DNA from: a virus
IMG/VR virus record: IMGVR_UViG_3300023174_000039
Location: 1-64,000 of that record
Length of the DNA: 64,000 nt
Reading direction: 5' to 3' (one strand)
Shown: positions 9,069-63,859 of the stretch, piece after piece
Layout of the letters: each line of letters begins with the position of its first letter
How positions within the stretch are numbered: position 1 is the first letter of the stretch
Made by a program: the position numbers and the translations under genes
The notes under the pieces: model-generated
Database searches by the model: none
Seen by the model: the letters and a program-made list of their open reading frames with translations, nothing else
Told to the model about the DNA's origin: nothing

Positions 9069-9074
9069 ACAACT

Positions 9075-9932: not shown

Positions 9933-9936
9933 ACGG

Positions 9937-9944: not shown

Positions 9945-9959
9945 ACCAGGGCCTTTAAT

Positions 9960-31033: not shown

Positions 31034-31041
31034 AGGAATCA

Positions 31042-46991: not shown

Positions 46992-46997
46992 GACATT

Positions 46998-47255: not shown

Positions 47256-47700
47256 TAAACTAAGCATTGCCAACGAAATGAAAATGTTTGACCACAAGGT
47301 TAGAGATTTCTACGACGAGTTAACAGACGAAGAGCGCAAAAAGTTTGCCCCATTCCTAATGATACGCTGGGGTAGTGCAGTAGAAGGCTCTAGAGACCTT
47401 CAAGAGTTTTATGTAATTTCCACAAACGAACGACTGAACAAAAACTTCTTTAACATCAGTTCATCTAAACATCGTAAACTGCAATGGCTAATGGCCACAA
47501 CTGTGAGTCCAGGCATGGGCTCGCTACGACACAACTGGATTGCACCCAAGAAAAAAGAAGCAGGGGCAGGTTCAATGAAAAAGCAATTGACCGAACTGTT
47601 CCCGCACTACAAGCCAGACGAAATAGATGTCATGGCAGCAATCACAACCAAAAAAGAACTTGACCAATACATTAGACAGCATGGACGAGACACCAAGTAA
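47248..47700 (+). CDS. 62: gp62-like clamp loader small subunit (tentative)
   Basis: 150 aa. FAPFLMIRWGSAVEG, KHRKLQWLMATT, and FPHYKPDEIDVMAA are features I associate with the clamp-loader small subunit of aquatic T4-like phages. T4 gp62 is 187 aa and diverges strongly. The large subunit gp44 is not in this window, so context does not settle it. It overlaps upstream by 8 nt and downstream by 20 nt. Confidence 0.5.
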   Translation: MTDKLSIANEMKMFDHKVRDFYDELTDEERKKFAPFLMIRWGSAVEGSRDLQEFYVISTNERLNKNFFNISSSKHRKLQWLMATTVSPGMGSLRHNWIAPKKKEAGAGSMKKQLTELFPHYKPDEIDVMAAITTKKELDQYIRQHGRDTK

Positions 47701-48370: not shown

Positions 48371-49866
48371 CTAGAAAACTTTGCCTTGGCAACAATACCG
48401 AACTTACTGATCAACAGACAAGAAAACTAGCAGCCGAGCAAGGCACAATTTGTCACGGGCTGTTGAGCGAGCTAGACGGTGAAATCGCAAACTACTCAGT
48501 TGACGGGTTTTATCATAGTAGCGTGTATGATATAATGCCAGGAAGATTGCGAGAAATTTGTTTAGATATTGGGCATGTAATAGTATTGCCGCAAACAAAG
48601 TCAGATTATCAAGATCCAGAATCATTTTATCAAACAGTTCAATTGTGTAAACAGCTAGAGACAACCATCACTGTGGAATGGTTAGATCCAGAAATTAAAA
48701 ATACAAATCAATTTTTTGAACAGCTGGTCAATACCAATAGCAGTTTTTGCATCTATCCCTTTATTGAGTTATTGGTACAGAATGGTTCTACTACTGTATG
48801 TTGTAGATCATCTAATCCGGTAACAGAACTAAGTCAACTGAAAGACTACGGAACTGATCCAGGGTACACTGCTATTAGAGATAAAATGTTACAAGGTGTA
48901 CGTGTTCCAGAACATTGTTCTGCATGCTATAAACTAGAAAATGTTGGGATCACGAGTCCCAGGAAACAAGAAACAATTGAATGGGCAAACAGATTAGGAC
49001 TCAATGGCCTAGAAGATTTGCAACAAATTACACAACCTGTGTATTACGAAATTAGACCAAGCAACATATGCAATTTGCAATGCAGGATGTGCTCTCCGAC
49101 TTACAGTCATCTTATTGATCAAGAATACCAACAGTTGGGATTATCGGCACCTATAAAGATCGACCACACTGGATTTGATATTGTGGATATCAACAATGTT
49201 AACAAACTCTATGTGGCTGGAGGAGAACCAATGGCCATGCCTGATTTTTATGAATTTGTAGACCAATGTATTGATACTCATAACACTGATTTTGAATTTG
49301 TTATAAACACAAATGGTACCAAGTTAAGCGATCGGTTTAAACGTCAACTACAGCACTTCTCTCGAATGCAGTTTATTGTAAGCATTGACGGGGCTGATCG
49401 ACTAAATCACTATATTAGATGGCCCAGTAACTGGAGCACAATAGTAGACAATGTCACTTACTTGGTCACAAACAATTACTATGTGACATTCAACGTTACT
49501 GTGAGCATGTACAATGTACTGGATTTAAATAATCTGTTTAGATTTTTTGAACAACATTGGCCGAGGCAGGCAGTGCATTTACAATTGGCGGGATCTCGAG
49601 ATGATTATCTGTCAGCATTTAACCACCCGTCAAGCGACTTGGTAGTACATATGTTGACACAATCTCAACAGACTGCCACCTATCGTGACAATGCATTGGT
49701 AGCAAACTTTGTTGACACAATGCTAGCCCATTACAAAAATAACCATCAATGTGATTTGGTAAAACTTAAAAAATTCTTTGAGATAAATGACAAGTTAGAT
49801 CAATCAAGGAACATATATCTTGAGGACTACTTGCCCGATCTGTCTAACGCCAGGAGCATGATATGA
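48364..49866 (+). CDS. N-twitch radical SAM protein (paralogue 5, extended)
   Basis: 500 aa, the longest of the family. An extra N-terminal domain of about 125 residues (LGNNTELTDQQTRKLAAEQG, a variable segment ending near 110) precedes the module C129-IYP-F, 12 residues, CC, then C-x2-C (CSAC). Core C236-x3-C240-x2-C243 (ICNLQCRMC), GGEP in YVAGGEPMA, SIDGADRLNHYIRWPSNW. The extension may recognise a partner or substrate. It overlaps the zinc-finger gene by 7 nt. Confidence 0.83.
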   Translation: MVTRKLCLGNNTELTDQQTRKLAAEQGTICHGLLSELDGEIANYSVDGFYHSSVYDIMPGRLREICLDIGHVIVLPQTKSDYQDPESFYQTVQLCKQLETTITVEWLDPEIKNTNQFFEQLVNTNSSFCIYPFIELLVQNGSTTVCCRSSNPVTELSQLKDYGTDPGYTAIRDKMLQGVRVPEHCSACYKLENVGITSPRKQETIEWANRLGLNGLEDLQQITQPVYYEIRPSNICNLQCRMCSPTYSHLIDQEYQQLGLSAPIKIDHTGFDIVDINNVNKLYVAGGEPMAMPDFYEFVDQCIDTHNTDFEFVINTNGTKLSDRFKRQLQHFSRMQFIVSIDGADRLNHYIRWPSNWSTIVDNVTYLVTNNYYVTFNVTVSMYNVLDLNNLFRFFEQHWPRQAVHLQLAGSRDDYLSAFNHPSSDLVVHMLTQSQQTATYRDNALVANFVDTMLAHYKNNHQCDLVKLKKFFEINDKLDQSRNIYLEDYLPDLSNARSMI

Positions 49867-49877
49867 CTTCAAATAAG

Positions 49878-49907
49878 TTGACTAATAGTCATGGCCAAAT
49901 GTACAAT
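49878..49907 (+). promoter_or_regulatory. Early sigma70-type promoter
   Basis: TTGACT, 18 bases, TACAAT. The leader then carries a CTAAAGGA ribosome site before the ATG at 49930. Confidence 0.55.
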
Positions 49908-49929
49908 CTATGCTAAAGGACATAAAATT

Positions 49930-50280
49930 ATGATTAAAACAATCAACGCTGGAGCAGGAATTAGAATTCAGAATGGGTATACTTCTACAACTTATGTTAG
50001 TATGAGCAATTCCAGTGCTGGCATGGTTAGGTACAATGGAAATTCAAACAACATGGAAGTGTATGACGGATCATCGTGGTTGACACTAAACGCCGCATAC
50101 CCCATTGTAGAACTTGATGGTGATGTACTGGCTGTGGTAAACTGGGCCAAAGAAAAAATGAACAAAGAAGCCCGGATTCAAGAGTTAGCACAGCAAAATA
50201 AAACTGTAGCAGATGCATTAGAGGCTGTGGAAAAAGCACAACAGCAATTGGACATTGTTGCAAAGTTGGTCACTGTATGA
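49930..50280 (+). CDS. Small protein with tail-fibre-like beta motif
   Basis: 116 aa starting [38 protein letters not shown] resembles the repeat at the end of many phage fibres; the C terminus is a coiled coil ([28 protein letters not shown]). I prefer this ATG because it follows the ribosome site and the -10 box would fall inside a longer protein. It might be a whisker/fibre accessory or chaperone. It overlaps endonuclease VII by 4 nt. Confidence 0.55.
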
Positions 50281-50693
50281 GTACTTTTCACCAGTTCTTT
50301 GACGGTGTTGAGGAAAAAACAAAAGTATGTGGGATATGCTCAATAAAAAAACCACTTGGAAGTTTTGGCAACGATGGCGGAGCAAACTACAAAAGATACG
50401 AGTGCAAAGAATGTGCCCGAAAACAAGCCAAGATAATTGCTAAGATAAAAAAATCAGTGCAGAAGCCATCACATGATTATCGATGTCCAATATGCAATCG
50501 AACAGCTGATGAAGCACAAGGTCATAGCATAAAAAAGAAACAAGTTTGGTGCGCCGATCACGATCACGAAACAGGACAATTTAGAGGATGGTTGTGTCAT
50601 AAGTGCAATTTAGGGTTAGGAAACTTTGGGGATGATCGAAAGAGATTACAGGCTGCTGACAAATATTTGGAAAAACATGAGCGCGGACATTGA
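50277..50693 (+). CDS. 49: Recombination endonuclease VII
   Basis: 138 aa. The zinc cysteines of T4 endonuclease VII are here as CGIC...CKEC and CPIC, and the His-Me catalytic loop is [30 protein letters not shown] near residues 94-123. It resolves Holliday junctions and branches before packaging. The start overlaps the previous stop by 4 nt. The C terminus overlaps the next gene by 17 nt. Confidence 0.92.
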
Positions 50694-51255
50694 CATTGAC
50701 TTTGCTGACAGAGATCTTGTGTTGAAGTTGATTCAGCATACTCCGGCACGACAATGGCACCAAGGACAAGTGCGCCGACACAATTCAGGAGTGTATGTTA
50801 CAGACATTCCGTACGATCCCATACACAACTGTGCGGCATTGGATTACGAAGAAGCTGAACAGCGTGGGTATTTTAAAATAGACTTTTTGAACATGGGTGT
50901 GTATCAGTTGGTCAAGAGCCCCGAACACTATGAACAGATGTTATCAGCTACTCCGCCTTGGGATAGACTTTGGCAAGATACAGAATGGGCTCGACAGTTG
51001 GTTCACGTGGGCAACTACACAGACCTGCTAAAGAACATGCGTCCTGCAACCATACCACAGATGGCAGCATTTATTTCAATTATTAGGCCTGGCAAAGCAC
51101 ACTTACAGAACCAGTCTTGGGCAGATGTGTTTGCAAGTGTATGGGACGGTGATGACTCACAGGGATACACGTTTAAAAAGTCACACAGTTTGTCTTATGC
51201 AATGTTGGTTGTGTTGCACATGAACTTGCTCAATCAAGACGCCGAACCAGTGTAA
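50677..51255 (+). CDS. DNA polymerase III alpha-like fragment protein
   Basis: 192 aa. It resembles short internal pieces of bacterial Dna[13 protein letters not shown] at the start (compare DIDFD motif), [41 protein letters not shown] and [16 protein letters not shown]. It lacks a full palm with three Asp or a PHP domain, so it is not a working polymerase on its own. Comparable proteins occur in aquatic T4-like phages. It may bind a DNA end or the host beta clamp/polymerase. Starts within the endonuclease VII gene. Confidence 0.6.
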
Positions 51256-51607
51256 TTGACTTGCGTTTGCTTTTCTTGCGAGATATATCCAGTAGACTGC
51301 AAGCAGGGCCATGTAATATTTCTAAATCTTTGTTGACAAAAGTGCGTAGTGTGTAGCGGAAAGGTTCCCACTCTGTGCGCAAAAATATGTTGATAGGAAT
51401 AGATCTGTTGCTCTCCCACCACCAGGTTGTGGCCAGCTCTAAGAATTTCATCTTGTTTTCCGGCAATAGTATGCTACCAAAGTCGTAGATAGTTGTGACT
51501 GTGTCGTCCCTGTTCTGTACAATGCCCACATACTCAGCGTTTGCATACACGCACAGCGTGATAAACGGATACTTTTCCGTCAGTTTGTCAAAGATATTGT
51601 TGCCCAT
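51230..51607 (-). CDS. Conserved-type hypothetical protein
   Basis: 125 aa. ITLCVYANAEYVGIVQNRDDTVTTIYDFGSI and WWWESNRSIPINIFLRTEWEPFRYTLRTF, then a basic C terminus [13 protein letters not shown]. Small alpha/beta protein seen in aquatic T4-like phages, function unknown to me. It overlaps the convergent DnaE-like gene by 26 nt, and its start abuts the late motif of the divergent 51620 gene. Confidence 0.62.
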   Translation of the reverse strand: MGNNIFDKLTEKYPFITLCVYANAEYVGIVQNRDDTVTTIYDFGSILLPENKMKFLELATTWWWESNRSIPINIFLRTEWEPFRYTLRTFVNKDLEILHGPACSLLDISRKKSKRKSITLVRRLD

Positions 51608-51612
51608 AAATA
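51605..51612 (+). promoter_or_regulatory. Late promoter CATAAATA
   Basis: A late octamer overlapping the divergent start codon, seven bases before the ATG at 51620. Confidence 0.55.
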
Positions 51613-51619
51613 TTGTTCT

Positions 51620-52690
51620 ATGTATTCCACTACAGCATACTTATATCAGCAAATCACCAGAGTGTTATTGATTGACACCAGCGGTGGCTATTTCACAGCG
51701 AGGTACGATCCAGTGTACGCAAAACAACTAACAGTAAACAAAGGTGTTGACAACGTTCTACTCTTTGAATTTATCAATCAGGAACAAAAACCTGTAAACA
51801 TCACCGGCAGCACTTTTGTGTTCCGTATGATCAGCCAAAACGGCGATGTACTACTACTCAGCAAACGGATGGAAACACTCAGTGCCGCACTTGGCAGAGT
51901 CAAGGTAGTGCTAACAACTGAAGACACTATTGATTTAACAGCACAACCTGCCAGTTACAGTATCCAACGCACATCGGGTGATTATGTTCAAGCTGTGTAC
52001 ACAGATGCCAATTCGCAAGCTCGAGCAGACTGCAACATTGTGGATTCAATACTGCCCGAATTTCAAGACAGTGCCAATTTAACTATTCCCACAATTTATG
52101 GACCAAATGCATGGCCACAAAGTCCACCAAGTAGTTGGCCTGATTGGGCACTTACACCGCAGCCATTGAACGCCGCACATGCAACAGAATTTTATTCAAG
52201 CCAAATTCCCACACATGGTGCCAGCTTGACCACAATCAAAATGGATCTAACACATTACACAGGCACAATCAAAGCACAAGCCGCACAGGACTATGAAGCA
52301 CCATGGTATGATGTAACAGATTCAACACAGTACATGGATGCAACAGAAAGCATTTATCTTAATGTGGTTGGGTTCCATCCCTTGATACGTGTGGCATTTA
52401 ACCAAAGTCAAGGATGGGGCGCCACTGCCACTGCCACTGTGGTCAATGGAGTGGTCACAGGTATCACGGTCAACAACACCGGACAACGCTATATTGCCGC
52501 ACCAAATGTAATGATTATTGGCAACGGTGCAGGAGCCCGAGCAATAGGCAGCGTGGGGGCAGATGGCGGAATTGGTCCAATCACCGTGACTGATGGCGGC
52601 AACGGTTATCTACCTGTGACGTTTGGCAATCCGGTCTACGCTAGTGTTGTCATAAACAACGGCACTGTTACCAATTTGATGTATCGTTGA
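51620..52690 (+). CDS. Baseplate/fibre-type virion protein
   Basis: 356 aa. Residues 35-120 resemble the BppU N-terminal domain of baseplate upper proteins (LTVNKGVDNVLLFEFINQ, ITGSTFVFRMISQNG). The C-terminal 90 residues carry a duplicated glycine-rich motif: GVVTGITVNNTGQRYIAAPNVMI and GIGPITVTDGGNGYLPV. It is a late gene by its promoter, yet it stands alone between replication genes, which suggests an accessory, possibly host-range, role. Confidence 0.65.
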   Translation: MYSTTAYLYQQITRVLLIDTSGGYFTARYDPVYAKQLTVNKGVDNVLLFEFINQEQKPVNITGSTFVFRMISQNGDVLLLSKRMETLSAALGRVKVVLTTEDTIDLTAQPASYSIQRTSGDYVQAVYTDANSQARADCNIVDSILPEFQDSANLTIPTIYGPNAWPQSPPSSWPDWALTPQPLNAAHATEFYSSQIPTHGASLTTIKMDLTHYTGTIKAQAAQDYEAPWYDVTDSTQYMDATESIYLNVVGFHPLIRVAFNQSQGWGATATATVVNGVVTGITVNNTGQRYIAAPNVMIIGNGAGARAIGSVGADGGIGPITVTDGGNGYLPVTFGNPVYASVVINNGTVTNLMYR

Positions 52691-52719
52691 TTGATCTTTG
52701 TTGAGCAATCTGTTATACT
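52691..52719 (+). promoter_or_regulatory. Early sigma70-type promoter for primase-helicase
   Basis: TTGATC, 17 bases, TATACT; the -35 overlaps the stop of 51620. Confidence 0.58.
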
Positions 52720-52725
52720 ATACAG

Positions 52726-53709
52726 ATGCTAGACATTGTTTCCTACTTACCCGGCAAACGCAAACACACTCCATCTGGGTGGATCAGCTTCAATGCAGTT
52801 TGTTGCAGTCACAATGGGAATAGTCCAGACAAACGACAGCGTGGCGGACTCAAAGCAACAGAACAGGGTTGGAGTTATCACTGCTTTAACTGCGGATACA
52901 CCGCCAGCTTTATCCTTGGCCGCACTGTAAGCTTCAAAGCCCGCAGGCTCTTGAGTTGGATGGGTGTACCAGATGCTGAAATTGATCATCTCAATTTGGA
53001 AAGTTTGCGACACAGATCAATCAACGGCATATTAGAAGATCGACAAAAGATAGTCAATGTATTAAGTTCAATTGAGTTTGATGAACGAGACTTGCCGCCA
53101 TATGCTGAATTGTTGACTGATGAAGGCAATTACAGAGATTATGTGCGACGTCGTTGTGTGCCAGAAGACTTTCCTGTAATGGTACAGTTACATAACGATG
53201 GTATTCATTGGACACGCCCACATGTGATAATTCCATTTACCCATAATGATCAAGTTGTGGGTTATACATGTAGATTTCTCGACAACAAAACGCCTAAGTA
53301 CATATCCGACAGCCAACCTAACTATGTGTTTGGCACAGATCTACAAAACAAAGCCTGGGACCATGCGTTAGTAATGGAAGGTATCTTTGATGCACTCAGC
53401 ATCGGAGGTCTTGCCGTGATGCACAACACCATCAGCGATGGACAGGCTAGACTCATACGCAGTCTAGGAAAACAAATAACAGTAGTGCCAGACCAAGATG
53501 TGCCTGGCCTAGAACTAATTGATCGTGCTGTAGAACTAGGATGGGCTGTGAGCATACCCAACTGGCCCGCACACATTAAAGATGTAAATGATGCTGTGAT
53601 AGAGTTGGGTCGACTTGGCACCTTGCTGACTATTATGCAGGCTAGAGAAACAAGTCGAATCAAGATAGAAATAAGGAAGAAACAACTTGCTAAAAGAATA
53701 CGGACTTGA
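52726..53709 (+). CDS. 61: DNA primase gp61
   Basis: 327 aa. A CHC2-type zinc site is formed by VCCSHNGNSP and YHCFNCGY near residues 25-57. A Toprim domain follows with VMEGIFDALSIGG near 220 and TVVPDQDVPG near 255. It synthesises primers for lagging-strand replication with helicase gp41, whose gene overlaps by 23 nt. The operon 61-41 shares one early promoter. Confidence 0.88.
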   Translation: MLDIVSYLPGKRKHTPSGWISFNAVCCSHNGNSPDKRQRGGLKATEQGWSYHCFNCGYTASFILGRTVSFKARRLLSWMGVPDAEIDHLNLESLRHRSINGILEDRQKIVNVLSSIEFDERDLPPYAELLTDEGNYRDYVRRRCVPEDFPVMVQLHNDGIHWTRPHVIIPFTHNDQVVGYTCRFLDNKTPKYISDSQPNYVFGTDLQNKAWDHALVMEGIFDALSIGGLAVMHNTISDGQARLIRSLGKQITVVPDQDVPGLELIDRAVELGWAVSIPNWPAHIKDVNDAVIELGRLGTLLTIMQARETSRIKIEIRKKQLAKRIRT

Positions 53710-55159
53710 CGTCCAAAGACTATTTTTAGAGATGATGTTGGAAGATGCGTCTAGCTATGTGCGCATTCAAAATATCTACAACCCAGAGAACTTTGACAAG
53801 AGCTTGCGCAAAGCCGCAGAGTTTATTAAAGAACACTCAGACAAACACAAAACCATGCCTGACAGGTTGCAGATTAGTGCCACCACAGGAGTTAAACTGC
53901 AACCGGTGCCAGACTTAAACGAAGGTCACTATGACTGGTTCATGCAGGAGTTTGAATCATTTACCAAGCGTCAAGAACTTGAACGTGCTATCTTAAAGGC
54001 AGCAGACTTGCTGGAAAAGGGCGACTTTGATCCTGTGGAAAAACTCATCAAAGATGCTGTACAAATCTCACTTACCAAAGACATGGGCACAGACTACTTT
54101 GCTGATCCGGCTGCCAGGATCAACAAATATTTCAACTCAGGTGGGCAAGTATCAACAGGCTGGCCACAGATGGATCGATTGTTGTATGGTGGATTCTCAA
54201 GAGGAGAACTAAACATCTTTGCAGGTGGATCGGGTTCGGGCAAGAGCTTGGTCATGATGAACATTGCGTTAAACTGGTTACAGCAAGGACTAAGTGGTGT
54301 TTATATCTCACTAGAACTTTCAGAAGAACTCACAAGTTTGCGCACAGATGCCATGTTAACACAAACCAGTACCAAAGACATTCGAAAAGATATTGACACA
54401 ACCACAATGAAAGTCATACTGGTGGGCAAGAAGTCGGGAAATTATCAAGTTAAAGGATTACCGGCACAGAGCAATATCAATGATATTCGCGCTTATTTAA
54501 AAGAGTATCAAATTCAAACAGGCAAGAAAGTGGACTTTGTGATGATTGACTACTTGGATTTGTTGATGCCAGTAAGTGCTAAGGTCAGTCCCAACGACTT
54601 GTTTGTGAAAGACAAGTATGTGAGTGAGGAATTGCGCAACTTGTCCAAAGAACTGGGAGTGTTAATGGTCACCGCATCACAGTTGAATCGATCAGCTGTG
54701 GAAGAAGTTGTGTTTGATCACTCACACATTTCAGGTGGTATTTCCAAGATCAACACAGCAGACAATGTGTTTGGTATCTTTACCAGTCGGTCAATGAAAG
54801 AGCGTGGCAAGTATCAAATACAATGTATGAAATCACGTAGTTCAACAGGTGTGGGACAAAATATCGATCTGGAATACAACATTGAAACCATGCGTATTAC
54901 TGATGAGGGCGGTGACGAAGGAACTGGTTACAACAAACCACAGAGCAGTATCATGGACACAATCAAAGCACGTAGCCAAATAACCACTGTTGATAGTGAA
55001 AGTACCAAGTCTACCAAGTGGGAGAAGCCAACCGGTAAACACGCATGGGAATATCAAACTGGCAGTACAGATCAGAAATCAGACGATACAGAAAAAGTCA
55101 CAGCAGATGTGCAAAGTGCAAAACTTAAACAAATGCTTGCAGGTATTAAAAAGGGTTAG
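53687..55159 (+). CDS. 41: Replicative helicase gp41
   Basis: 490 aa, DnaB/gp41 family. Walker A FAGGSGSGKSLVMMN near residue 178, an ISLELSEEL segment, Walker B FVMIDYLDLLMP near 285, sensor VMVTASQLNRSAV near 327, and arginine finger region KSRSSTGVGQ. The start is TTG inside the primase gene with AAGGAAGAAA upstream. A Ser/Thr/Lys-rich tail ends the protein. It forms hexamers on the lagging strand. Confidence 0.92.
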   Translation: MLKEYGLDVQRLFLEMMLEDASSYVRIQNIYNPENFDKSLRKAAEFIKEHSDKHKTMPDRLQISATTGVKLQPVPDLNEGHYDWFMQEFESFTKRQELERAILKAADLLEKGDFDPVEKLIKDAVQISLTKDMGTDYFADPAARINKYFNSGGQVSTGWPQMDRLLYGGFSRGELNIFAGGSGSGKSLVMMNIALNWLQQGLSGVYISLELSEELTSLRTDAMLTQTSTKDIRKDIDTTTMKVILVGKKSGNYQVKGLPAQSNINDIRAYLKEYQIQTGKKVDFVMIDYLDLLMPVSAKVSPNDLFVKDKYVSEELRNLSKELGVLMVTASQLNRSAVEEVVFDHSHISGGISKINTADNVFGIFTSRSMKERGKYQIQCMKSRSSTGVGQNIDLEYNIETMRITDEGGDEGTGYNKPQSSIMDTIKARSQITTVDSESTKSTKWEKPTGKHAWEYQTGSTDQKSDDTEKVTADVQSAKLKQMLAGIKKG

Positions 55160-56052
55160 GCAAACACGCAACCGTTGTTGCCTATGCAATACCATTTGTT
55201 GTTGATGTACTGTAGTGTGCAACCGTCACCAATGTCGTTGAGAGTGATAGTACCGGTGCCGGATGATTTCCATCCTGCATTGGTCACTGTGATAACCATG
55301 TCGCCAAGATCTGCAACCATCATAAAGGTTTTGATTTGACCATTGGTACCAGCAGCCAATGTAGCAGTTTCTGCTGAGGAAGTAGAAATATAGCTGGCAG
55401 TTGTTGCTAGGCTTACCGCTGCCGATGCGGCTAGATCTTCACTGCTGGCCAACAACAATGGATTTGTGTACAACCTCAAAGGACGATTTAAATCAAACAT
55501 GGTAACAGTTGTACCACCATTCTTGGTTTGGAATGCAAACTCGTATGTGCCCGCGGCAGCAAAGGTAATGGTATTGCCTGAAATGCCCTGTACGCCAGTT
55601 GTGCCGTACAGTGTGGTCATGCCCGAGAATGTGACAGTTCTACCTGCAATGTCTATGACAAGTTGTAATTTAATATAGCCAAAAGTAGGAGCAATTGGCC
55701 AATTATTAATGCTGACATTGATATTGCCCGTAGTTGTGATACTTTGATAATGACCGGCTGCGTAATCCACTGCAATTGATCCTGCTGTGGCAGTGATGTT
55801 GACTGCTGTGGCTGAAAAATCTTGAATTTTGGCCGCATAAATTAGCGCATCATTCATGTTGTTGTCCAAGGTGGTGCCATTCAGTGCAGCCTTTAATACA
55901 GCTTTGTTTTCTAGATCGTTTATTTCGTTTTCTGCGTATTGAAAATTTGTTTGAATTGCTGTAAAATTATCACGAAATCCCTGTGTATTGTTAGGTTGTC
56001 CGGCCACAGGATATGCGGTATCTATATTGTTTGGGTTGATCTGACTGGTCAT
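55156..56052 (-). CDS. Virion protein, probably baseplate or fibre
   Basis: 298 aa, rich in Thr/Asn/Ala/Gly. It starts MTSQINPNNIDTAYPVAGQPNNTQGFRDNFTAI, a common opening in aquatic T4-like structural proteins, then a beta-repeat region (GYIKLQLVIDIAGRTVTFSG, AAGTYEFAFQTKNGGTTV), and ends with a small cap (TLQYINNKWYCIGNNG). The start ATG has AAAGGAA upstream. Its 3' end overlaps gp41 by 4 nt. Confidence 0.65.
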   Translation of the reverse strand: MTSQINPNNIDTAYPVAGQPNNTQGFRDNFTAIQTNFQYAENEINDLENKAVLKAALNGTTLDNNMNDALIYAAKIQDFSATAVNITATAGSIAVDYAAGHYQSITTTGNINVSINNWPIAPTFGYIKLQLVIDIAGRTVTFSGMTTLYGTTGVQGISGNTITFAAAGTYEFAFQTKNGGTTVTMFDLNRPLRLYTNPLLLASSEDLAASAAVSLATTASYISTSSAETATLAAGTNGQIKTFMMVADLGDMVITVTNAGWKSSGTGTITLNDIGDGCTLQYINNKWYCIGNNGCVFA

Positions 56053-56083
56053 TATTATTCCTTTGCTTTGCAAGCAGTATAGA

Positions 56084-56092
56084 TATTTATTA
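56084..56092 (-). promoter_or_regulatory. Late promoter TAATAAATA
   Basis: A minus-strand late-type motif with a 31-base leader before the ATG at 56052. Confidence 0.55.
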
Positions 56093-56105
56093 GAATTCAA
56101 AAAGC

Positions 56106-56113
56106 ACTAAATA
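56106..56113 (+). promoter_or_regulatory. Late promoter ACTAAATA
   Basis: A late octamer 19 bases before the ATG at 56133, divergent from the minus-strand late motif at 56084. Confidence 0.5.
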
Positions 56114-56132
56114 ATCCAAAGGTTCTTGAGTA

Positions 56133-56381
56133 ATGCAAAAAAAGACACGTAGTTTGTTGGAAGAATTAGACTCAATGTATGTTGAGCGAGATCGTCGCCT
56201 CATCATTGAATCACGTGCAGATAATATAATTGCCAGTGCAATCAGGCTGGTTGAACAAATTGAACACGAGTTTGGCACTGAGCAAGCAGAGAATCTCACA
56301 AGAAAATTGCTCAATGCCATACGAACAAAGGATGCTGGAAAGTTTTCTAGATCCGTTAGGAAAACCAATGCAGATTCATGA
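56133..56381 (+). CDS. Small helical hypothetical protein
   Basis: 82 aa, almost wholly helical and charged (RSLLEELDSMYVERDRRLIIESRADNIIASAIRLVEQIE). A short basic C terminus follows. It overlaps the next gene by 14 nt. Small proteins of this type occur in aquatic T4-like phages in late operons. No function is evident. Confidence 0.58.
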   Translation: MQKKTRSLLEELDSMYVERDRRLIIESRADNIIASAIRLVEQIEHEFGTEQAENLTRKLLNAIRTKDAGKFSRSVRKTNADS

Positions 56382-57069
56382 AATAACACGCAAACAAATA
56401 GCCGAAGCTGTTGGCGATAAAATATTAGGTGGCTTGACCAACATGCTGTACAAATCAGCAGGTGCTACCAATCCACATGATCAAAATGGTCTTCAAGGCC
56501 CTGCCACAGCTGGCAATCTAAGACAAGGTGCCGCTGGTGAAATGAATAAGACATTGCTAGCACCACTTGCAAAAGAAATGCAAAAACGTTGGGCACAAAC
56601 AGTGCAACAACTGTTGATAAAATCAGTTGATAAAACCACAGGTGCCCCTGCCACCAGTGCGGCGGGAATTGATAGCACGGCATTAGAAAAAGAAATGTAT
56701 ACGTTTATAAATACATTGGTTGGGTTTGACGTGGGCACATTGCCCAGCATGGATGATGGTTCAGGGCAGGCCAAGCAACTGGATTCAGAACTAAAGCCAC
56801 AGATCACAGCGGCCATTGCCAACACACAAAAGCCCACAACTGGAGCAGATGTTTGGCTGCCATTGGCCACTAGTATACAACGTGCAAAAAGCATAAAGAA
56901 TTTTGCTAGTGGCGGTAAAGCTGCCGGAGGCCCCAGCAAGTTCTTACCTATTACACCAACAGGAGTAGCAGGCAAAGTACTAGTAGATGGCCAGCCATAC
57001 AACCGAACTAATCCAATTCATATAGCATCAGTCAAGGCGGCGGGAATTGACCCTGCCACACTCAAATAA
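56368..57069 (+). CDS. Predicted internal head protein C
   Basis: 233 aa. The start MQIHEITRKQIAE-A has an I-x-E site as in capsid-targeted proteins. The rest is Ala/Gly/Thr/Pro-rich with helices (EMQKRWAQTVQQLLIKS, LEKEMYTFINTLVG) and ends LVDGQPYNRTNPIHIASVKAAGID. I prefer this ATG because TTAGGA lies just upstream; earlier in-frame ATGs lie inside 56133. It overlaps the next ATG by one base. Confidence 0.55.
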   Translation: MQIHEITRKQIAEAVGDKILGGLTNMLYKSAGATNPHDQNGLQGPATAGNLRQGAAGEMNKTLLAPLAKEMQKRWAQTVQQLLIKSVDKTTGAPATSAAGIDSTALEKEMYTFINTLVGFDVGTLPSMDDGSGQAKQLDSELKPQITAAIANTQKPTTGADVWLPLATSIQRAKSIKNFASGGKAAGGPSKFLPITPTGVAGKVLVDGQPYNRTNPIHIASVKAAGIDPATLK

Positions 57070-58961
57070 TGAAATATCTAACAAAACTACTAGAAGGCGG
57101 CAATGTGTTCAAGGACAAACAAGGCCAGCCACTCACACAACGCATCAATCAAGCTGATGTGCCTGCCACCATCAAATACATTGAAAATATTTTGGGAATT
57201 GAATTCCCGCCCGAACGCTGGTTGGGATCTACGGGCCGCAAGCCCACATCAGGCGACTTGGATCTTGGTGTGGACCTAAATGAAATTGACAAAGATCAAT
57301 TGGCTGCTGCACTACAGCAAATTGTAACTGGCCAGGGACTGGATCCACGTGAATGGGTTGTTAAAAAGGGCGAAGTACACTTTAGAACCCCCATTGCTGG
57401 AGATCCCAACAAAGGTTATGTACAAACAGACTTTATGTTTTTCCCCAATTTGGACTGGGGCACATTCTATTATGGTGGCGCAGAAGGGTCTGCATACAAA
57501 GGCATGAACCGCAATGTGCTAATGTCAAGTATGGCCAAGGCCTTGGGCTTTAAAGTGGGTGCAAATGGCATGTTCAGCAGATCAACTGAGCAACTGGTTC
57601 CTGGCGGAATGGATCCCAATCATGTGGCTCAAGTGTTATTGGGCCCAGCATTCACAAAAGAAAATCTAAAGAATGTGGAAAGCATCTACGCCGCATTGAG
57701 TAATGATCCCAATAAAGATGCCAAGCTAAAAGATTTCCGTGAATATCTAGCACGTGAAGGATTCAAAGAGCCACAACTGTCGGTGTCTGAAGATGATGTG
57801 GGCTTTTTGGGACGCCTGCGTGATCGTATTGTTAACAAGGGCTATGTGGCACTGGTAGAAGCCGAGGAACCTGGAGTAGGCGGCCGAGCCAAGGGCATTG
57901 AACACCTGGAAGATCTAGTGTTCCGTCGTGGCACACAAGGTATTCAAGACGCCTTGGACATTGTGCAACATGCTACAGAGAATCCCCGAACAACCACTGC
58001 CAAGTGGGACGGTAAGCCAGCTGTGATTTGGGGTCGCAAACCCAGCACAGGCGAGTTTGTGTTGACTGATGGATCCGGCTTTGAAGCCAAGGGCTACGAC
58101 GGTCTTGCTACCAGTCCACAAATGATGGCTGCTATCCAACGCACACGGTCAGGCAATCGCGATGAATTGATCAACTTGTATGCACAGCTATTCCCTGTGC
58201 TAGAAGCCACACTGCCAGCCAACTTCCGCGGCTACGTCAAAGGTGATCTGTTGTACATGTCAACCCCGCCAGAAATTGCCGGTAACTATGTGTTCCGCCC
58301 CAACACTATTGAGTATAAAATTCCAGCTCGAAGTAAATTGGGACAACGCATCGGAAACAGTGACATTGGTATTGCTGTACACTCAATGTATTCGGATGTG
58401 GGCGATGCACGTCAACCACTTAAAGGTGTGACATTTAATGAAGTACCTGGCCTAATGCTAGAGCGTCCAGCAACACCATCAGCATTGGTAACAGAACCTG
58501 CCAAAGTCAAACAACTCAAGCAATTGATACGCACAGATGGTGCAGACATTGCCACATTGTTTAATCCTGCCGAACTGCGAGCACACAAGATCACAGACCT
58601 TGCCAAACTATGCGTGGACTATATCAACACCAAGGTTGGTGCACCACTGAACCCGCAAACACTATTGCCCGAGTTTGGCCACTGGTTGCAAAGCCGAGTA
58701 ACACCCAGCAAGTTCCGTAATATTGTGGAGTATCTGGAAAGCCCCAGTAGCAATACCCCTGCGCTGGCCGCTGCCTTTACTGCGTTTATACTGTTGCATG
58801 ATTTGAAGATGGACATTCTAAAACAAGCAGATCTAGAGCATCCAGGACAAGAAGGCTGGGTCATGGCCACCCCTGCAGGTTATGCCAAGGCTGTAAATCG
58901 CTTTGATCCCAATGCTTTTGCTGCTCAAAATCGGCAGAGAAATAACCCTCAACCCACGTGA
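57069..58961 (+). CDS. Nucleotidyltransferase plus ligase-like protein, probably head-packaged
   Basis: 630 aa. The start MKYLTKLLE-G resembles a capsid-targeting peptide with L-x-E. Residues 50-125 are a pol-beta-type nucleotidyltransferase: G53-S54 ... D63-L-D65 and third acidic D121 in YVQTDFMF. Residues 305-420 look like the adenylylation domain of ATP ligases: AKWDGKPAVIWGR with K312 as the expected nucleotidyl lysine, FEAKGYDG, and YVKGDLLYM. This C-terminal part matches a phage family I recall as DUF6267. The chemistry is inferred, not shown. Confidence 0.65.
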   Translation: MKYLTKLLEGGNVFKDKQGQPLTQRINQADVPATIKYIENILGIEFPPERWLGSTGRKPTSGDLDLGVDLNEIDKDQLAAALQQIVTGQGLDPREWVVKKGEVHFRTPIAGDPNKGYVQTDFMFFPNLDWGTFYYGGAEGSAYKGMNRNVLMSSMAKALGFKVGANGMFSRSTEQLVPGGMDPNHVAQVLLGPAFTKENLKNVESIYAALSNDPNKDAKLKDFREYLAREGFKEPQLSVSEDDVGFLGRLRDRIVNKGYVALVEAEEPGVGGRAKGIEHLEDLVFRRGTQGIQDALDIVQHATENPRTTTAKWDGKPAVIWGRKPSTGEFVLTDGSGFEAKGYDGLATSPQMMAAIQRTRSGNRDELINLYAQLFPVLEATLPANFRGYVKGDLLYMSTPPEIAGNYVFRPNTIEYKIPARSKLGQRIGNSDIGIAVHSMYSDVGDARQPLKGVTFNEVPGLMLERPATPSALVTEPAKVKQLKQLIRTDGADIATLFNPAELRAHKITDLAKLCVDYINTKVGAPLNPQTLLPEFGHWLQSRVTPSKFRNIVEYLESPSSNTPALAAAFTAFILLHDLKMDILKQADLEHPGQEGWVMATPAGYAKAVNRFDPNAFAAQNRQRNNPQPT

Positions 58962-60195: not shown

Positions 60196-60689
60196 ACAAA
60201 CAACACAAGCTAGAAGCTTTTGCCGCAAAAGAAATACTCAATCTGACTGATAAATTGATTGTGGGTGATGGCCGCGGCGGCATCTTGGCTTTTGGAAAAT
60301 ACAATATAGTTCCTACAGATTACAAGTTTGTGGTCAATATAAAAAATCAAGATTCTGTCACATTTGGCAGCAAACGCAGTGCAATCAGCTGGTGTATTGC
60401 AGATCAACACAATCAACTCACACTGGCACGTATTATACACACGCTAGACACTAAAAAACACACACTGGCAGCGGATATACACTGCCGCAAGACCCTTGCA
60501 GAACGTAGCAAGCACGAAGATTTTTACGAAGGTGTTTCCATCAAACTTCAACGCAAGATTGATCATATGGAAGCAGTTGATGCCGAATTAGAGAAATGTT
60601 TAATTTCGGCTAAATATATGCAAATTAGAGGATTCTCAAATGAAACTGCAAGAACTGGCCGCCCCGTCGCCAACAAAACAAATCGCTAA
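60192..60689 (+). CDS. Hypothetical virion-operon protein
   Basis: 165 aa starting MNKQHKLEAFAAKEILNLTDKLIVG, with an ATGA overlap to the XhlA-like gene. The core YKFVVNIKNQDSVTFGSKRSAISWCIADQHN looks alpha/beta; the C-terminal half is helical. It overlaps the next gene by 50 nt, an unusually long overlap containing that gene's late promoter upstream. No known function. Confidence 0.58.
   Translation: MNKQHKLEAFAAKEILNLTDKLIVGDGRGGILAFGKYNIVPTDYKFVVNIKNQDSVTFGSKRSAISWCIADQHNQLTLARIIHTLDTKKHTLAADIHCRKTLAERSKHEDFYEGVSIKLQRKIDHMEAVDAELEKCLISAKYMQIRGFSNETARTGRPVANKTNR
60609..60616 (+). promoter_or_regulatory. Late promoter GCTAAATA inside 60192
   Basis: A late octamer 23 bases before the ATG at 60640, with a TTAGAGGA ribosome site between. 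Confidence 0.6.
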
Positions 60690-61530
60690 AGTTTTCGAAA
60701 GTTACTTTGGTTCCAACATTGAATTTGACCGTTTGACTCAGCGTCAGACTCAACACCTGTTGCAACGTGTGCAAGGGTTGTTGCGTGAACATCGTTCAGG
60801 TTCAGACAGATATCAAAGCCAACAAAATCCAGGTTACCTTAAACTGGTAATGATGGAGCAGGCATTGACCACACGCATGGCCGAAGAAGCTATTCCTGTT
60901 GCTCCAGCCGCTGGTGTTGGTGCCGCACCCGGTGCCAAGCCTGCACAACCAAGCACTGTGCAAGTTAAAGATCCTAAATTGGCTGCCGCATTAAAGAAAA
61001 GCACAGCTGGTCAGGCATTGAATCCTGAAGAACAAAAGCTAGTGGCTGGTGCTGCCATGATGCAGGCTGAAAGCCGTTTGCGTCGTGCAATGACTCGATT
61101 GAACGAATCAGAAGTACAACAAGCCCAAGTGGTGTTGGCCGCACAAGACATGGTTGACAAGATGCAAGGCATGTTGGAAGATGTTACTGAGTTGCAGTTC
61201 AAAGAATTGCCAGCTCTGGTTGACTCAATCAAGAATCAAGTGGGTATTGACCAAGCCACACAATTCAACACAGATGCCACAGCCGCTCTTGCTGGCCTGG
61301 TACAGAATCTACAAGGCGCCAAAGCCGCATTGGATCAAGCACTTGGTGTGGTAACCGGTCAAGCACCTCCACCGGATGCTGGCATGGCAGCACCTGCTCC
61401 TGGCGCAGTTGATCCAGCAGCCGGTATGGCGCCACCTGCACCCGAAATGGGCGGCGAAATGCCTCCTGAGATGCCTGCTGATCCAGAAGCAGCCGCAGGC
61501 GGCCCTGCCCTAGGCAGAGCACGTAGATAA
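60640..61530 (+). CDS. Putative prohead core / virion protein
   Basis: 296 aa. Helical N-terminal half (FDRLTQRQTQHLLQRVQGLLREH, YLKLVMMEQAL), then AESRLRRAMTRLNESEVQQAQVVLAAQDMVDKMQGMLEDVTELQFKELPALVDSI. The C-terminal 60 residues are Pro/Ala/Met/Gly-rich. Similar proteins are conserved in aquatic T4-like phages in late operons and look like scaffold or core components. Its stop overlaps the next start by one base. Confidence 0.62.
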   Translation: MKLQELAAPSPTKQIAKVFESYFGSNIEFDRLTQRQTQHLLQRVQGLLREHRSGSDRYQSQQNPGYLKLVMMEQALTTRMAEEAIPVAPAAGVGAAPGAKPAQPSTVQVKDPKLAAALKKSTAGQALNPEEQKLVAGAAMMQAESRLRRAMTRLNESEVQQAQVVLAAQDMVDKMQGMLEDVTELQFKELPALVDSIKNQVGIDQATQFNTDATAALAGLVQNLQGAKAALDQALGVVTGQAPPPDAGMAAPAPGAVDPAAGMAPPAPEMGGEMPPEMPADPEAAAGGPALGRARR

Positions 61531-61889
61531 TGCGATTCCGTGAATTCATAACAGAATCCACAACACCCAGCCCCGACGAACTGTTAGGGCTGGTCAACTT
61601 TCTTGCCGGACGTGCCGATGACGAAGGCGCACAAAAACAGATTTCTCGAGGTGCATTTATTAGTCTTGCACAAAGTCTAAACATCAATGTTACCGAAGAC
61701 AACATTGAAGAAATTGTAGGACAACCTCCACTGAGTTCGGTGCTGGAACCCATGACTCCAGAATCACAAGAAATCATATTCAAAGGCGCAGGCGAACCCG
61801 AAGCGCCTGCCACAATGCCTGTGAACAAAGCACAAGACATAGTTGCCAATGCCGCTAAATCGGCAATGAATAAACCACGAGGCGTTTAA
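61530..61889 (+). CDS. Predicted internal head protein D
   Basis: 119 aa. It starts MRFREFITE-S, the best match in this window to the T4 leader MKTYQEFIAE with an I-x-E processing site. The body is a helical domain (DELLGLVNFLAGRADDEGAQKQISRGAFISLAQSL) with IEEIVGQPP, then an Ala-rich tail. Late operon position next to the putative core protein supports packaging in the head. Confidence 0.6.
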   Translation: MRFREFITESTTPSPDELLGLVNFLAGRADDEGAQKQISRGAFISLAQSLNINVTEDNIEEIVGQPPLSSVLEPMTPESQEIIFKGAGEPEAPATMPVNKAQDIVANAAKSAMNKPRGV

Positions 61890-61956: not shown

Positions 61957-62268
61957 ATGAAAAAGATCTTAATCACACTCATTTTAGCGGCAGCTGCCGT
62001 TCCTGCCTTGGCACAGCACTGGCAACATCACGGTTATAGACCCTACAGACCTTATGGACCTCCTGTATACAGTGGCGGTGGTTGGGTGGCACCACTCATA
62101 ATTGGTGGTGTAGTGGGTGCGGCAATTGCCAATCGTCCTGTGCCGGCAGAAACTGTGATTGTGCAGAGACAACCCGTAATTGTGCAACAGCAAGAATCAT
62201 GCACAGCTTGGAAAGAAATACAAACATCGGATGGTAACACCTACCGAGAAAGAACCTGTACACAATAA
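61957..62268 (+). CDS. Small secreted Pro/Tyr/Gly protein
   Basis: 103 aa. Signal peptide MKKILITLILAAAAVPALA (cut near residue 20), then a His/Tyr/Pro-rich stretch (YRPYRPYGPPVY), a hydrophobic glycine-zipper-like segment (APLIIGGVVGAAIA), a Gln/Val-rich stretch and a C-terminal Cys pair (SCTAW...RTCTQ). It resembles bacterial envelope proteins. It may be exported to the periplasm during infection, perhaps altering the surface. It is the first gene of the transcript carrying iscU and iscA. Confidence 0.7.
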   Translation: MKKILITLILAAAAVPALAQHWQHHGYRPYRPYGPPVYSGGGWVAPLIIGGVVGAAIANRPVPAETVIVQRQPVIVQQQESCTAWKEIQTSDGNTYRERTCTQ

Positions 62269-62269
62269 T

Positions 62270-62662
62270 ATGGCATACTCACAAAAAGTTGTAGACCACT
62301 ACGAAAACCCACGCAACGTGGGTTCCTTCTCCAAGGACGACACTGACATTGGCACAGGCATGGTAGGTGCTCCTGCCTGCGGTGATGTAATGAAATTGCA
62401 GATCAAAGTTGTAGATGGAATAATTACAGATGCACGATTTAAAACATATGGCTGCGGGTCAGCCATTGCATCAAGTTCATTGATCACTGAAATGGTCAAA
62501 GGCATGACACTAGATAATGCTTCACAAATTAAAAACTCAGAAATTGCTGAAGAACTAGCACTACCTCCTGTAAAAATACACTGTAGTATTCTTGCAGAAG
62601 ATGCTATCAAAGCCGCAGTTGAAGACTACAGAAAGAAACATGACACAACGCATCTTAATTGA
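62270..62662 (+). CDS. iscU: Iron-sulfur scaffold protein IscU
   Basis: 130 aa. Full-length IscU: cluster ligands C37 and D39 (GAPACGDVMKLQIKV), C62 (TYGCGSAIASSS) and C105 (KIHCSILAEDAIKAA), plus the LPPVK motif (98-102) recognised by the HscA chaperone. By eye it is very similar to E. coli IscU along the whole length. It would build Fe-S clusters with host IscS as sulfur donor; no iscS is in the window. Its stop lies 23 nt inside the following radical SAM gene. Confidence 0.96.
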   Translation: MAYSQKVVDHYENPRNVGSFSKDDTDIGTGMVGAPACGDVMKLQIKVVDGIITDARFKTYGCGSAIASSSLITEMVKGMTLDNASQIKNSEIAEELALPPVKIHCSILAEDAIKAAVEDYRKKHDTTHLN

Positions 62663-63539
62663 CAAACTGGAATTTTATGTTACAAACGTTTGTAACTTGA
62701 CCTGCAACGGGTGTAACCGCTACAATAATTATAAATTTGCCGGATGGCAAAGTTGGGACGAATATGGCCCCATACTAGAACGCTGGGCAGAAAAAATTGA
62801 TATCCGCCATCCTGTTATTCTTGGCGGCGAGCCATTGCTCAATCCAGAAATCAACAAGTGGGTGGAAGGACTAAAACGCTTGTGGCCCGACCATTCCGGC
62901 GTACAAATTCAGAGCAACGGCACACGAATTGACAAGGTCAAGGGTTTGTATGAAGCTCTGGGCAACGGGCAAGGACACTGGATTGGTATCAGCATACACA
63001 ATCCCGACGACAAAGAAGAAATCTTTTCACGCATTAGAAACTTCTTGACAGCACCCATTACAGAAACCAGTGATCCCAATCATCCCATTGGTTCAGACTT
63101 TCAGTTTACTGACGTAAACAAAAACTATGTGCATGCCTGGATGAGCAACAAGTTTGTACAAAGTAATATTTTAGAATTGCCCAATGGAAGATTTGGACTG
63201 TACAACAGCGATCCTGTCAAGGCACATGACAATTGTGCCTTTGCTAGATTTAAAAACTATCACATGATCCGTGGCAAGATCTACAAGTGCGGCCCTGCTG
63301 CCTTGATGCCAGAATTTGATGAGCAGTATCAATTTGATATCTCGGACGAAGATCGATTGTTGATGAAAGGTTACAAGCCCTTGGCCATTGACGAGTTTGA
63401 CACACGTGGTGCTGAGTTCTTGGGCAATATTGACAATGTGATTGATCAATGCAAATTTTGCCCAGAATCATATGACTACAAACCTATTACTTTCACCAAC
63501 TTGAAAAAGAACTGGAAGAAAGATGATGTTGTAGCATGA
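62640..63539 (+). CDS. Radical SAM protein in the isc cassette
   Basis: 299 aa. The cluster motif is very near the N terminus: C18-x3-C22-x2-C25 (VCNLTCNGC). GGEP occurs in VILGGEPLL near residue 61, then IQSNGT, and a C-terminal SPASM-like cysteine set (IYKCGPAAL, QCKFCPES) that could hold an auxiliary cluster. It lacks the N-twitch module of the other five, so it is a different subfamily. It overlaps iscU by 23 nt and iscA by 4 nt. Confidence 0.87.
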   Translation: MTQRILIDKLEFYVTNVCNLTCNGCNRYNNYKFAGWQSWDEYGPILERWAEKIDIRHPVILGGEPLLNPEINKWVEGLKRLWPDHSGVQIQSNGTRIDKVKGLYEALGNGQGHWIGISIHNPDDKEEIFSRIRNFLTAPITETSDPNHPIGSDFQFTDVNKNYVHAWMSNKFVQSNILELPNGRFGLYNSDPVKAHDNCAFARFKNYHMIRGKIYKCGPAALMPEFDEQYQFDISDEDRLLMKGYKPLAIDEFDTRGAEFLGNIDNVIDQCKFCPESYDYKPITFTNLKKNWKKDDVVA

Positions 63540-63859
63540 TCTCTGTAACAGATATTGCAGCCAATAAAATCTTAAAGAGCATTGCCAAACGCGGCCGAGG
63601 GCAAGGCATTCAAGTAGGTGTTAGAACTACAGGTTGCTCAGGCCTGGCCTACGTGCTAGAATATGTAGACAACCCCAACTTACATTGTGTTAGACACTAC
63701 GATAGCAATGGGGTTAGGATATTTGTAGATCCCAAGAACATACCTTATCTTGACGGCATGATTATCGATTTCAAAAGAAATGGCCTCAATGAAGGCTTTG
63801 AATTTATCAACAAAAATGAACGTGACCGCTGTGGTTGCGGAGAATCTTTTCGAGTGTAA
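63536..63859 (+). CDS. iscA: A-type iron-sulfur carrier IscA
   Basis: 107 aa. The three conserved cysteines are C34 (RTTGCSGLAYVLEYVD) and C99/C101 (DRCGCGESF), and LNEGFEF precedes the last pair, closely matching E. coli IscA in length and motif positions. A-type proteins carry Fe or Fe-S clusters to targets. The ATGA overlap with the radical SAM gene indicates coupled translation, so the clusters may be delivered directly to that enzyme. Confidence 0.96.
   Translation: MISVTDIAANKILKSIAKRGRGQGIQVGVRTTGCSGLAYVLEYVDNPNLHCVRHYDSNGVRIFVDPKNIPYLDGMIIDFKRNGLNEGFEFINKNERDRCGCGESFRV

What the first reader, a model, noticed from the sequence alone, without database searches (positions are those of the whole stretch)
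57069..58961. Probable head-packaged protein joining a nucleotidyltransferase and a ligase-like domain
A pol-beta-type GS...DxD domain is fused to a segment with KWDG and YVKGD motifs typical of ATP ligases or capping enzymes. Its N terminus looks capsid-targeted. An enzyme that enters with the genome and nucleotidylates or ligates host nucleic acid or protein (by analogy with T4 Alt, which is injected) would be new.
Basis: inference. Interest (0 to 1): 0.75.

Follow-up and report, generated by a model that had tools for sequence, protein, structure and literature searches.

The report
Head-packaged polymerase-plus-ligase polyprotein of phage
A giant lake phage makes one protein holding a DNA-polymerase-like nucleotide-adding enzyme joined to a ligase-like enzyme, with cutting sites for the phage's own capsid protease at its front end and exactly between the two enzymes, so it looks like a two-enzyme nucleic-acid repair kit that is loaded into the virus head, cut apart there and injected with the genome.

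Summary
The 630-aa ORF (57069-58961) is real and conserved (80 IMG/VR loci at 70% identity or more). Residues 10-237 fold as a DNA-polymerase-X/Pol-beta nucleotidyltransferase (GS..D63xD65..D121 conserved; Foldseek top 50 all family X). Residues 265-630 are DUF6267; its invariant KxDG, E-G-x-V and K-x-V-x-R motifs, and weak Foldseek hits led by DNA ligases, tRNA ligase and capping enzymes, mark it as a covalent nucleotidyltransferase (ligase). The T4 gp21-type cleavage motif (L/I)-x-E|A/G occurs twice only: after residue 9 and after residue 264. Both lie in the disordered N-terminus and linker of the AlphaFold model. All 32 fused homologues examined keep both sites. The phage encodes the matching S77 protease. 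The two domains are obligate partners, fused (17) or neighbouring genes (60) in 77 of 85 NTase loci. A PA5oct homologue of the NTase domain was found in virions by mass spectrometry, inside a partly syntenic cluster of virion proteins. Best reading: a capsid-targeted pro-polyprotein matured into two injected end-repair enzymes. Packaging, cleavage and activity of this protein are inferred; two stand-alone DUF6267 proteins without the tag were absent from virion proteomes. DNA versus RNA substrate is open.

The parts
57069..58961 (+). Whole gene: 630-aa pro-polyprotein (propeptide + Pol-X-like NTase + linker + DUF6267 ligase domain)
57069..57095 (+). Residues 1-9, MKYLTKLLE: putative capsid-targeting propeptide ending in an (L/I)-x-E|G protease site
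   Evidence: L7 and E9 invariant with variable upstream residues; AlphaFold pLDDT <50 exactly at residues 1-9; stand-alone NTases of three jumbo phages start at this point (MGG/MSG)
57096..57779 (+). Residues 10-237: DNA polymerase X / Pol-beta-fold nucleotidyltransferase
   Evidence: Foldseek PDB top 50 all family X polymerases, prob 0.99-1.00; alignment A2
57225..57263 (+). NTase active site, first part: GS (53-54) ... D63xD65
   Evidence: invariant in A1 and A2
57423..57431 (+). NTase active site, second part: Q119-T-D121 (third carboxylate)
   Evidence: Q119 and D121 invariant in A1 and A2
57780..57890 (+). Residues 238-274: largely disordered interdomain linker
   Evidence: pLDDT <50 at 238-245 and 252-274
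57852..57863 (+). L262-V-E264|A265: second prohead-protease-type site, at the joint of the two enzymes
   Evidence: (L/I)xE(A/G/S) present in 11 of 11 distinct linkers against 4 sites per 7003 core residues; all 32 fused homologues
57861..58958 (+). Residues 265-630: DUF6267, covalent nucleotidyltransferase (ligase-like) domain
   Evidence: PF19782 E 3.3e-28; AlphaFold pLDDT 89.7, pTM 0.85; Foldseek top hits DNA ligases, tRNA ligase, capping enzymes
58002..58013 (+). Motif I K312-W-D-G315 (predicted adenylated lysine)
   Evidence: K, D, G invariant in 37 sequences
58233..58247 (+). Motif III Y389-V-K-G-D393
   Evidence: G and D conserved in 90% or more
58365..58391 (+). Motif IIIa-like strand IGIAVHSMY (433-441) with H438
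   Evidence: H438 invariant
58851..58862 (+). Motif IV E595-G-W-V598
   Evidence: E, G, V invariant
58881..58901 (+). Motif V YAK607AVNR
   Evidence: K607 invariant; V and R at 90% or more
56368..57069 (+). Upstream coupled gene (233 aa), itself starting MQIHEITRKQIAE|A; likely co-packaged head protein
   Evidence: stop overlaps the ATG of 57069; conserved in 72 of 80 close loci
56133..56381 (+). 82-aa protein homologous to PA5oct gp259, Phosso and Atu_ph07 small proteins; synteny anchor
   Evidence: phmmer 4e-19 and 6e-20
60640..61530 (+). Head protein homologous to PA5oct gp247 (detected in virions by ESI-MS/MS); PHROG 14154 virion structural, head and packaging
61530..61889 (+). Small protein MRFREFITE|S..., CTS-type start; in the position of PA5oct gp246 (MS-detected), no homology detected

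Best explanation
A capsid-targeted pro-polyprotein. Its first 9 residues steer it into the prohead core. The phage's own T4-gp21-type (S77) protease then cuts after E9 and after E264, releasing two separate enzymes inside the maturing head: a Pol-X-like nucleotidyltransferase (residues 10-264) and a DUF6267 covalent nucleotidyltransferase/ligase (265-630). Both leave with the DNA at infection and act together on broken nucleic-acid ends: the NTase restores or adds nucleotides and the ligase, adenylated on K312, seals. Most likely use: instant repair, before any phage gene is expressed, either of host tRNA/RNA cut by defence nucleases or of nicked/gapped incoming phage DNA. Shown here: folds and conserved catalytic motifs, obligate pairing of the domains, conserved protease-type sites at both predicted joints, presence of the protease gene. 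Shown for a relative by others: virion presence of the NTase in PA5oct. Inferred: packaging and cleavage of this protein, its enzymatic activity, its substrate.
For: Pol-X fold: Foldseek PDB top 50 all pol lambda/beta/mu/TdT/PolX, prob 0.99-1.00, E from 2e-3. Ligase: DUF6267 3e-28, invariant KxDG/EGxV/KxVxR, Foldseek ranks 1-12 all DNA ligases, tRNA ligase or capping enzymes, but best prob 0.80; the Atu_ph07 NTase has a PF09414 RNA_ligase-like neighbour (E 0.002, below cut-off). Obligate pairing: 77 of 85 NTase loci carry DUF6267, 60 as separate genes and 17 fused. Sites: only two (L/I)xE(A/G/S) in the protein; 11/11 distinct linkers against 0.014 expected per 24 residues; both in the pLDDT<50 segments; 40 of 54 distinct stand-alone DUF6267 proteins carry such a site in an N-terminal tag and 5 start directly at the domain. 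gp21 cuts after L/I-X-E, and Alt and IP propeptides are 7-10 residues (PMC9026906). S77 protease and gp23-type capsid protein are in the genome. PA5oct NTase gp253 flagged ESI-MS/MS structural, in a partly syntenic virion-protein cluster. DUF6267's companion HIGH-type NTase, fused to it in some phages, is in virions of several cyanophages.
Against: No proteomics exists for this phage. The PA5oct NTase lacks a recognisable L-x-E propeptide yet is in virions, and PA5oct's separate ligase-like gp256 is not flagged by MS. Stand-alone DUF6267 proteins of S-SZBM1 and S-CREM2 (which lack the N-terminal tag) are absent from their virion proteomes. Foldseek E-values for the ligase domain are weak and TM-scores low. 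RlaP and the RNA_ligase Pfam family are not detected in the genome, and the phage has a separate ATP-dependent DNA ligase, so the substrate is open. The joint to the HIGH domain in three-part fusions does not consistently carry the site.
Confidence: 0.55

Rival explanations
1. Intracellular repair enzyme: a fused Pol-beta NTase + ligase made after infection, working like the RlaP/RNA-ligase pairs of jumbo phages to repair tRNA cut by host defences; the L-x-E motifs are not used and the protein is not packaged.
For: Gene lies just behind primase and DnaB helicase. Known jumbo-phage RNA-repair logic pairs Pol-beta NTases with ATP-grasp ligases (PMC7824862). Tag-less stand-alone DUF6267 proteins were not seen in two cyanophage virions.
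Against: Site conservation at the N-terminus and joint in all 32 fused homologues against near absence elsewhere; tag-or-nothing N-termini of stand-alone relatives; the NTase homologue and its neighbours are virion proteins in PA5oct.
Confidence: 0.22
2. Injected modifier of host molecules: the NTase and/or ligase-like domain transfers NMP to host protein or caps host RNA, as T4 Alt ADP-ribosylates RNA polymerase.
For: Pol-beta NTases occur as predicted protein-modifying domains in polyvalent phage proteins (PMC5512222). Capping enzymes are among the Foldseek hits of the second domain.
Against: Closest fold is DNA polymerase X, not protein-modifying NTases; obligate coupling to a ligase-type domain suggests a nucleic-acid end substrate.
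Confidence: 0.12
3. NAD/nucleotide-handling module: DUF6267 uses NAD+ as adenylate donor and the frequently attached NMNAT-like HIGH enzyme rebuilds NAD+ from the released NMN, so the packaged set is a self-recharging ligase.
For: DUF6267 is fused to or followed by a HIGH NTase in S-PM2, L213, L214, L253 and in 42 of 80 cyanophage-type loci; NMNAT-like proteins recur in cyanophage virions.
Against: No such partner next to the window gene (the window's own HIGH hit at 32163 sits in a sugar cluster); no NAD-binding Ia domain identified.
Confidence: 0.06

Closest known systems
T4 Alt and internal proteins IPI-III (capsid-targeting propeptide cut by gp21)
   Same: Short N-terminal propeptide ending in (L/I)-x-E, packaged-enzyme logic, S77 protease and gp23-type head in the same genome
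   Different: Different enzyme (nucleotidyltransferase + ligase, not ADP-ribosyltransferase) and a second conserved site that would split one precursor into two enzymes
RlaP (RNA-ligase-associated Pol-beta) NTase + ATP-grasp RNA ligase pairs of jumbo phages
   Same: Pol-beta-fold NTase obligately paired with a covalent ligase-type enzyme
   Different: Not RlaP (PF10127) or PF09414 by profile; NTase is closest to DNA polymerase X; fused and apparently head-packaged
Polyvalent proteins of phages (Iyer et al. 2017, PMC5512222)
   Same: Several enzyme domains on one polypeptide, predicted to be injected and processed
   Different: Processing here by the trans-acting prohead protease at the domain joint rather than an embedded peptidase; T4-type small cargo rather than giant proteins
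DUF6267 / phrog_455 proteins of cyanophages (stand-alone or fused to a HIGH cytidylyltransferase)
   Same: Same domain, same motifs, same genomic position near primase/helicase
   Different: Cyanophage versions lack the Pol-X partner and often have only the HIGH partner; function was not assigned
DNA polymerase family X + DNA ligase gap-repair pairs (e.g. African swine fever virus, named from general knowledge)
   Same: Same pair of activities by fold
   Different: Not homologous by sequence; here fused and with protease sites

Membership tests
DUF6267 (PF19782) | Pfam profile over cut-off | tested here: met
   99.6 bits against cut-off 27, residues 277-612
Covalent nucleotidyltransferase superfamily (DNA/RNA ligases, capping enzymes) | Motif I KxDG with invariant Lys | tested here: met
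   K312, D314, G315 invariant in 37 sequences
Covalent nucleotidyltransferase superfamily (DNA/RNA ligases, capping enzymes) | Motifs III (hxGD/E), IV (EGxV), V (K) | tested here: met
   G392-D393 90% or more; E595, G596, V598, K607 invariant
Covalent nucleotidyltransferase superfamily (DNA/RNA ligases, capping enzymes) | Ligase fold | tested here: inconclusive
   Foldseek ranks 1-12 all ligases/capping enzymes but E >= 0.015, prob 0.80 or lower, TM about 0.2
Covalent nucleotidyltransferase superfamily (DNA/RNA ligases, capping enzymes) | Lysine-AMP formation and strand sealing | not testable with these tools
   needs an assay
Pol-beta superfamily, family X polymerases | GS..DxD..D active site and palm fold | tested here: met
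Pol-beta superfamily, family X polymerases | N-terminal 8-kDa/HhH domain of pol beta | tested here: not met
   only about 50 residues precede the GS motif; so 'Pol-X-like', not a full pol beta
RlaP (PF10127) | Pfam profile match | tested here: not met
   no match in the whole genome
Rnl-type RNA ligase (PF09414) | Pfam profile match | tested here: not met
   no match in the genome; only the Atu_ph07 and Phosso neighbour ligases match weakly, below cut-off
T4-type head-packaged (CTS) protein | N-terminal propeptide ending in (L/I)xE before A/G/S | tested here: met
   specificity from PMC9026906
T4-type head-packaged (CTS) protein | Cognate S77 protease in the genome | tested here: met
   PF03420 1.3e-23
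T4-type head-packaged (CTS) protein | Presence in virions | tested here: inconclusive
   PA5oct NTase homologue yes; two tag-less DUF6267 proteins not detected; this protein untested

The most novel reading that the evidence does not exclude
A dedicated injected nucleic-acid end-repair kit: one capsid-targeted precursor cut by the prohead protease into a Pol-X-type nucleotide-adding enzyme and a new ligase family (DUF6267), in some phages with a third NMNAT-like enzyme, that acts in the first minutes of infection before transcription. It would be a bacteriophage polyprotein matured in trans by the head protease, spread across T4-type and jumbo phages in lakes and oceans.
Probability: 0.5. Interest if true: 0.82.

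Novelty: new variant of a known kind. Interest (0 to 1): 0.7.

Why it matters
DUF6267 is widespread in marine T4-type phages (468 phage records) and has no assigned function; the held paper library has no mention of it. Assigning it as a ligase paired with a Pol-X-like NTase turns a large set of 'hypothetical proteins' into a testable repair system. The conserved protease sites give a sequence rule, (L/I)xE tag or joint, for predicting head cargo in uncultured phages, and suggest that phages use the head protease to mature multi-enzyme cargo as eukaryotic viruses mature polyproteins.

Tried and rejected
Sequence searches of the PDB with the protein and with full-length, DUF6267 and NTase profiles found no credible relative. 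NCBIfam gave nothing. No homologue in bacterial/archaeal genome contigs, so a cellular origin could not be traced. RlaP and RNA_ligase Pfam membership rejected. The idea that DUF6267 is the phage's only DNA ligase was rejected: a PF01068 ligase lies at 76670-77263 of the same genome. The window's HIGH-type NTase at 32163 was rejected as partner: it scores as a heptose-phosphate adenylyltransferase-type protein with a cupin, in a sugar cluster. A rule that every packaged relative has the tag was rejected: PA5oct gp253 lacks it. The third joint (ligase to HIGH domain) was checked and does not consistently carry the site. The MIJ3 proteomics paper identified only four abundant structural proteins, so it is uninformative.

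Full report
What is there. The ORF at 57069-58961 encodes 630 aa; its ATG overlaps the stop of the 233-aa gene before it (TAATG). The genome record is a 331,654-base virus record with a T4-type head: S77 prohead protease (PF03420, 1.3e-23, 319159-319602) and gp23 capsid protein (PF07068, 1e-97). IMG/VR holds 80 loci with the same protein at 70-96% identity, so this is a conserved gene.

Second domain. Residues 277-612 match Pfam DUF6267 at 3.3e-28 and PHROG 455, unknown function. In an alignment of 37 DUF6267 domains down to about 20% identity the invariant residues include K312-x-D314-G315, E595-G596-x-V598 and K607, with G392-D393 and V609/R611 almost invariant. By established knowledge of the ligase/capping superfamily these are motifs I, IV, V and III. 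AlphaFold on that alignment gave pLDDT 89.7 and pTM 0.85. Foldseek against the PDB placed DNA ligases (archaeal, human LIG1, African swine fever virus, T4), a tRNA ligase and mRNA capping enzymes in the first twelve ranks, but with E 0.015 or worse, falling probability and low TM. I therefore call it a covalent nucleotidyltransferase from motifs, with the fold comparison as weak agreement.

First domain. G53-S54, D63, D65 and D121 are invariant in close homologues and in the divergent stand-alone relatives. The top 50 Foldseek hits of the full-length model were all family X DNA polymerases, prob 0.99-1.00, about 200 aligned columns. The 8-kDa/HhH domain of pol beta is absent. It is a Pol-X-like nucleotidyltransferase.

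The two belong together. A viral-contig scan with an alignment led by the Atu_ph07 NTase, plus named phages, gave 85 loci with the NTase: 60 have DUF6267 as a separate nearby gene, 17 have it fused, 8 have no DUF6267 hit. Among the 8, Atu_ph07, Phosso and PA5oct have a different KxDG..EGxV protein close by, weakly matching PF09414 RNA_ligase in two cases. Four large fusions add further domains; in L214 and L253 a HIGH-type (CTP_transf_like) NTase follows. In cyanophages DUF6267 is followed by or fused to such a HIGH NTase (S-PM2, S-SZBM1, S-WAM1).

Capsid targeting and cutting. T4 gp21 cuts after L/I-X-E; propeptides of Alt and the internal proteins are about 7-10 residues; the targeting sequence has been proposed as a general way to load proteins into T4-like heads (PMC9026906). 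In the window protein (L/I)xE followed by A/G/S occurs only at residues 7-10 (LLE|G) and 262-265 (LVE|A). L7 and E9 are invariant while the residues before them range from MNLLE to MKYLTKLLE. Three jumbo phages have NTases starting M-GG or M-SG at exactly this point, as if the tag were an addition. At the joint, 11 of 11 distinct linkers carry the site; the folded parts of the same proteins have 4 in 7003 residues, i.e. 0.014 per linker-sized stretch. In the AlphaFold model the only segments under pLDDT 50 are 1-9, 238-245 and 252-274, so both sites are exposed. Of 54 distinct stand-alone DUF6267 proteins, 40 have a tag with such a site, 5 start directly at the domain, and most of the rest have L-x-E before another residue. 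The joint of the fused protein thus looks like the retained tag of a once separate gene.

Virion evidence from relatives. The window cluster matches it at gp259, gp253 and gp247. The HIGH-type companion of DUF6267 was detected in purified virions of S-SM1 (PMC3037559), S-CREM2 (PMC10665884), S-SCSM1 (PMC9602691) and S-SZBM1 (PMC9146016); those checked start with a tag (MKSFLQFLKE|A, MKNFSSFLTE|A, MRFRQFIIE|A). DUF6267 proteins without a tag in S-SZBM1 and S-CREM2 are not in the proteome tables, which fits the tag model but leaves DUF6267 itself without a positive virion detection. The authors of those papers caution that enzymes may be carry-over.

Mechanism and novelty. Best reading: a precursor packaged in the prohead and cut into two enzymes that enter with the DNA and repair nucleic-acid ends. 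Pol-X and DNA-ligase fold hits lean to DNA; the RNA_ligase-like neighbour in Atu_ph07 and the RlaP precedent (PMC7824862) lean to RNA. The phage has its own replicative-type ATP DNA ligase, so this ligase is specialised. Known pieces are T4 Alt-type cargo, polyvalent proteins (PMC5512222) and RlaP/ligase pairs; the new part is a capsid-protease-processed enzyme pair and the assignment of DUF6267. Packaging and cleavage of this very protein, and all activity, are inferred.

Noticed in passing
L086 (Atu_ph07 46757-57197), 6606-9983: Next to the NTase/ligase genes lie four paralogues with tag-like starts (MRLFQLLE, MRWHQLIE, MKWHQLTE, MRWDQLTE) and PLYRGI...SIFCTG motifs that look like ADP-ribosyltransferases (as in T4 Alt); one has a weak GNAT match. 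Would fit an injected-effector cassette.
   Followed up: partly
44 NTase loci, e.g. L242 6579-7451; Atu_ph07 L086 5821-6609; Phosso L087 5824-6501: A third recurring neighbour, about 290 aa with a tagged start (MQFIQELHE|A) and an STDLY motif, no family match; possible third component of the module.
   Followed up: partly
L214, L253 (1094-1271 aa); S-PM2 S-PM2d138: Fusions of DUF6267 with a HIGH-type (NMNAT/cytidylyltransferase-like) domain, up to three nucleotidyltransferases of different folds on one chain.
   Followed up: partly
window 30973-32142 and 32163-32918: Phage-encoded MetK (methionine adenosyltransferase, 4.5e-143) next to a heptose-phosphate-adenylyltransferase-like + cupin protein and glycosyltransferase-like genes.
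   Followed up: no
window 48364-49866, 62592-63539, 62180-62662, 63536-63859: Radical SAM proteins together with NifU/IscU-like and IscA-like Fe-S assembly genes in a phage genome.
   Followed up: no
window 55156-56100 (-): A minus-strand 314-aa ORF, repeat-type fibre-like protein, inserted between DnaB and the cargo cluster in 56 of 80 close loci.
   Followed up: no
DUF6267 residues 279-282 (HxED), window 57903-57914: An invariant H-x-E-D just upstream of motif I in all DUF6267 proteins has no counterpart I can name in known ligases.
   Followed up: no
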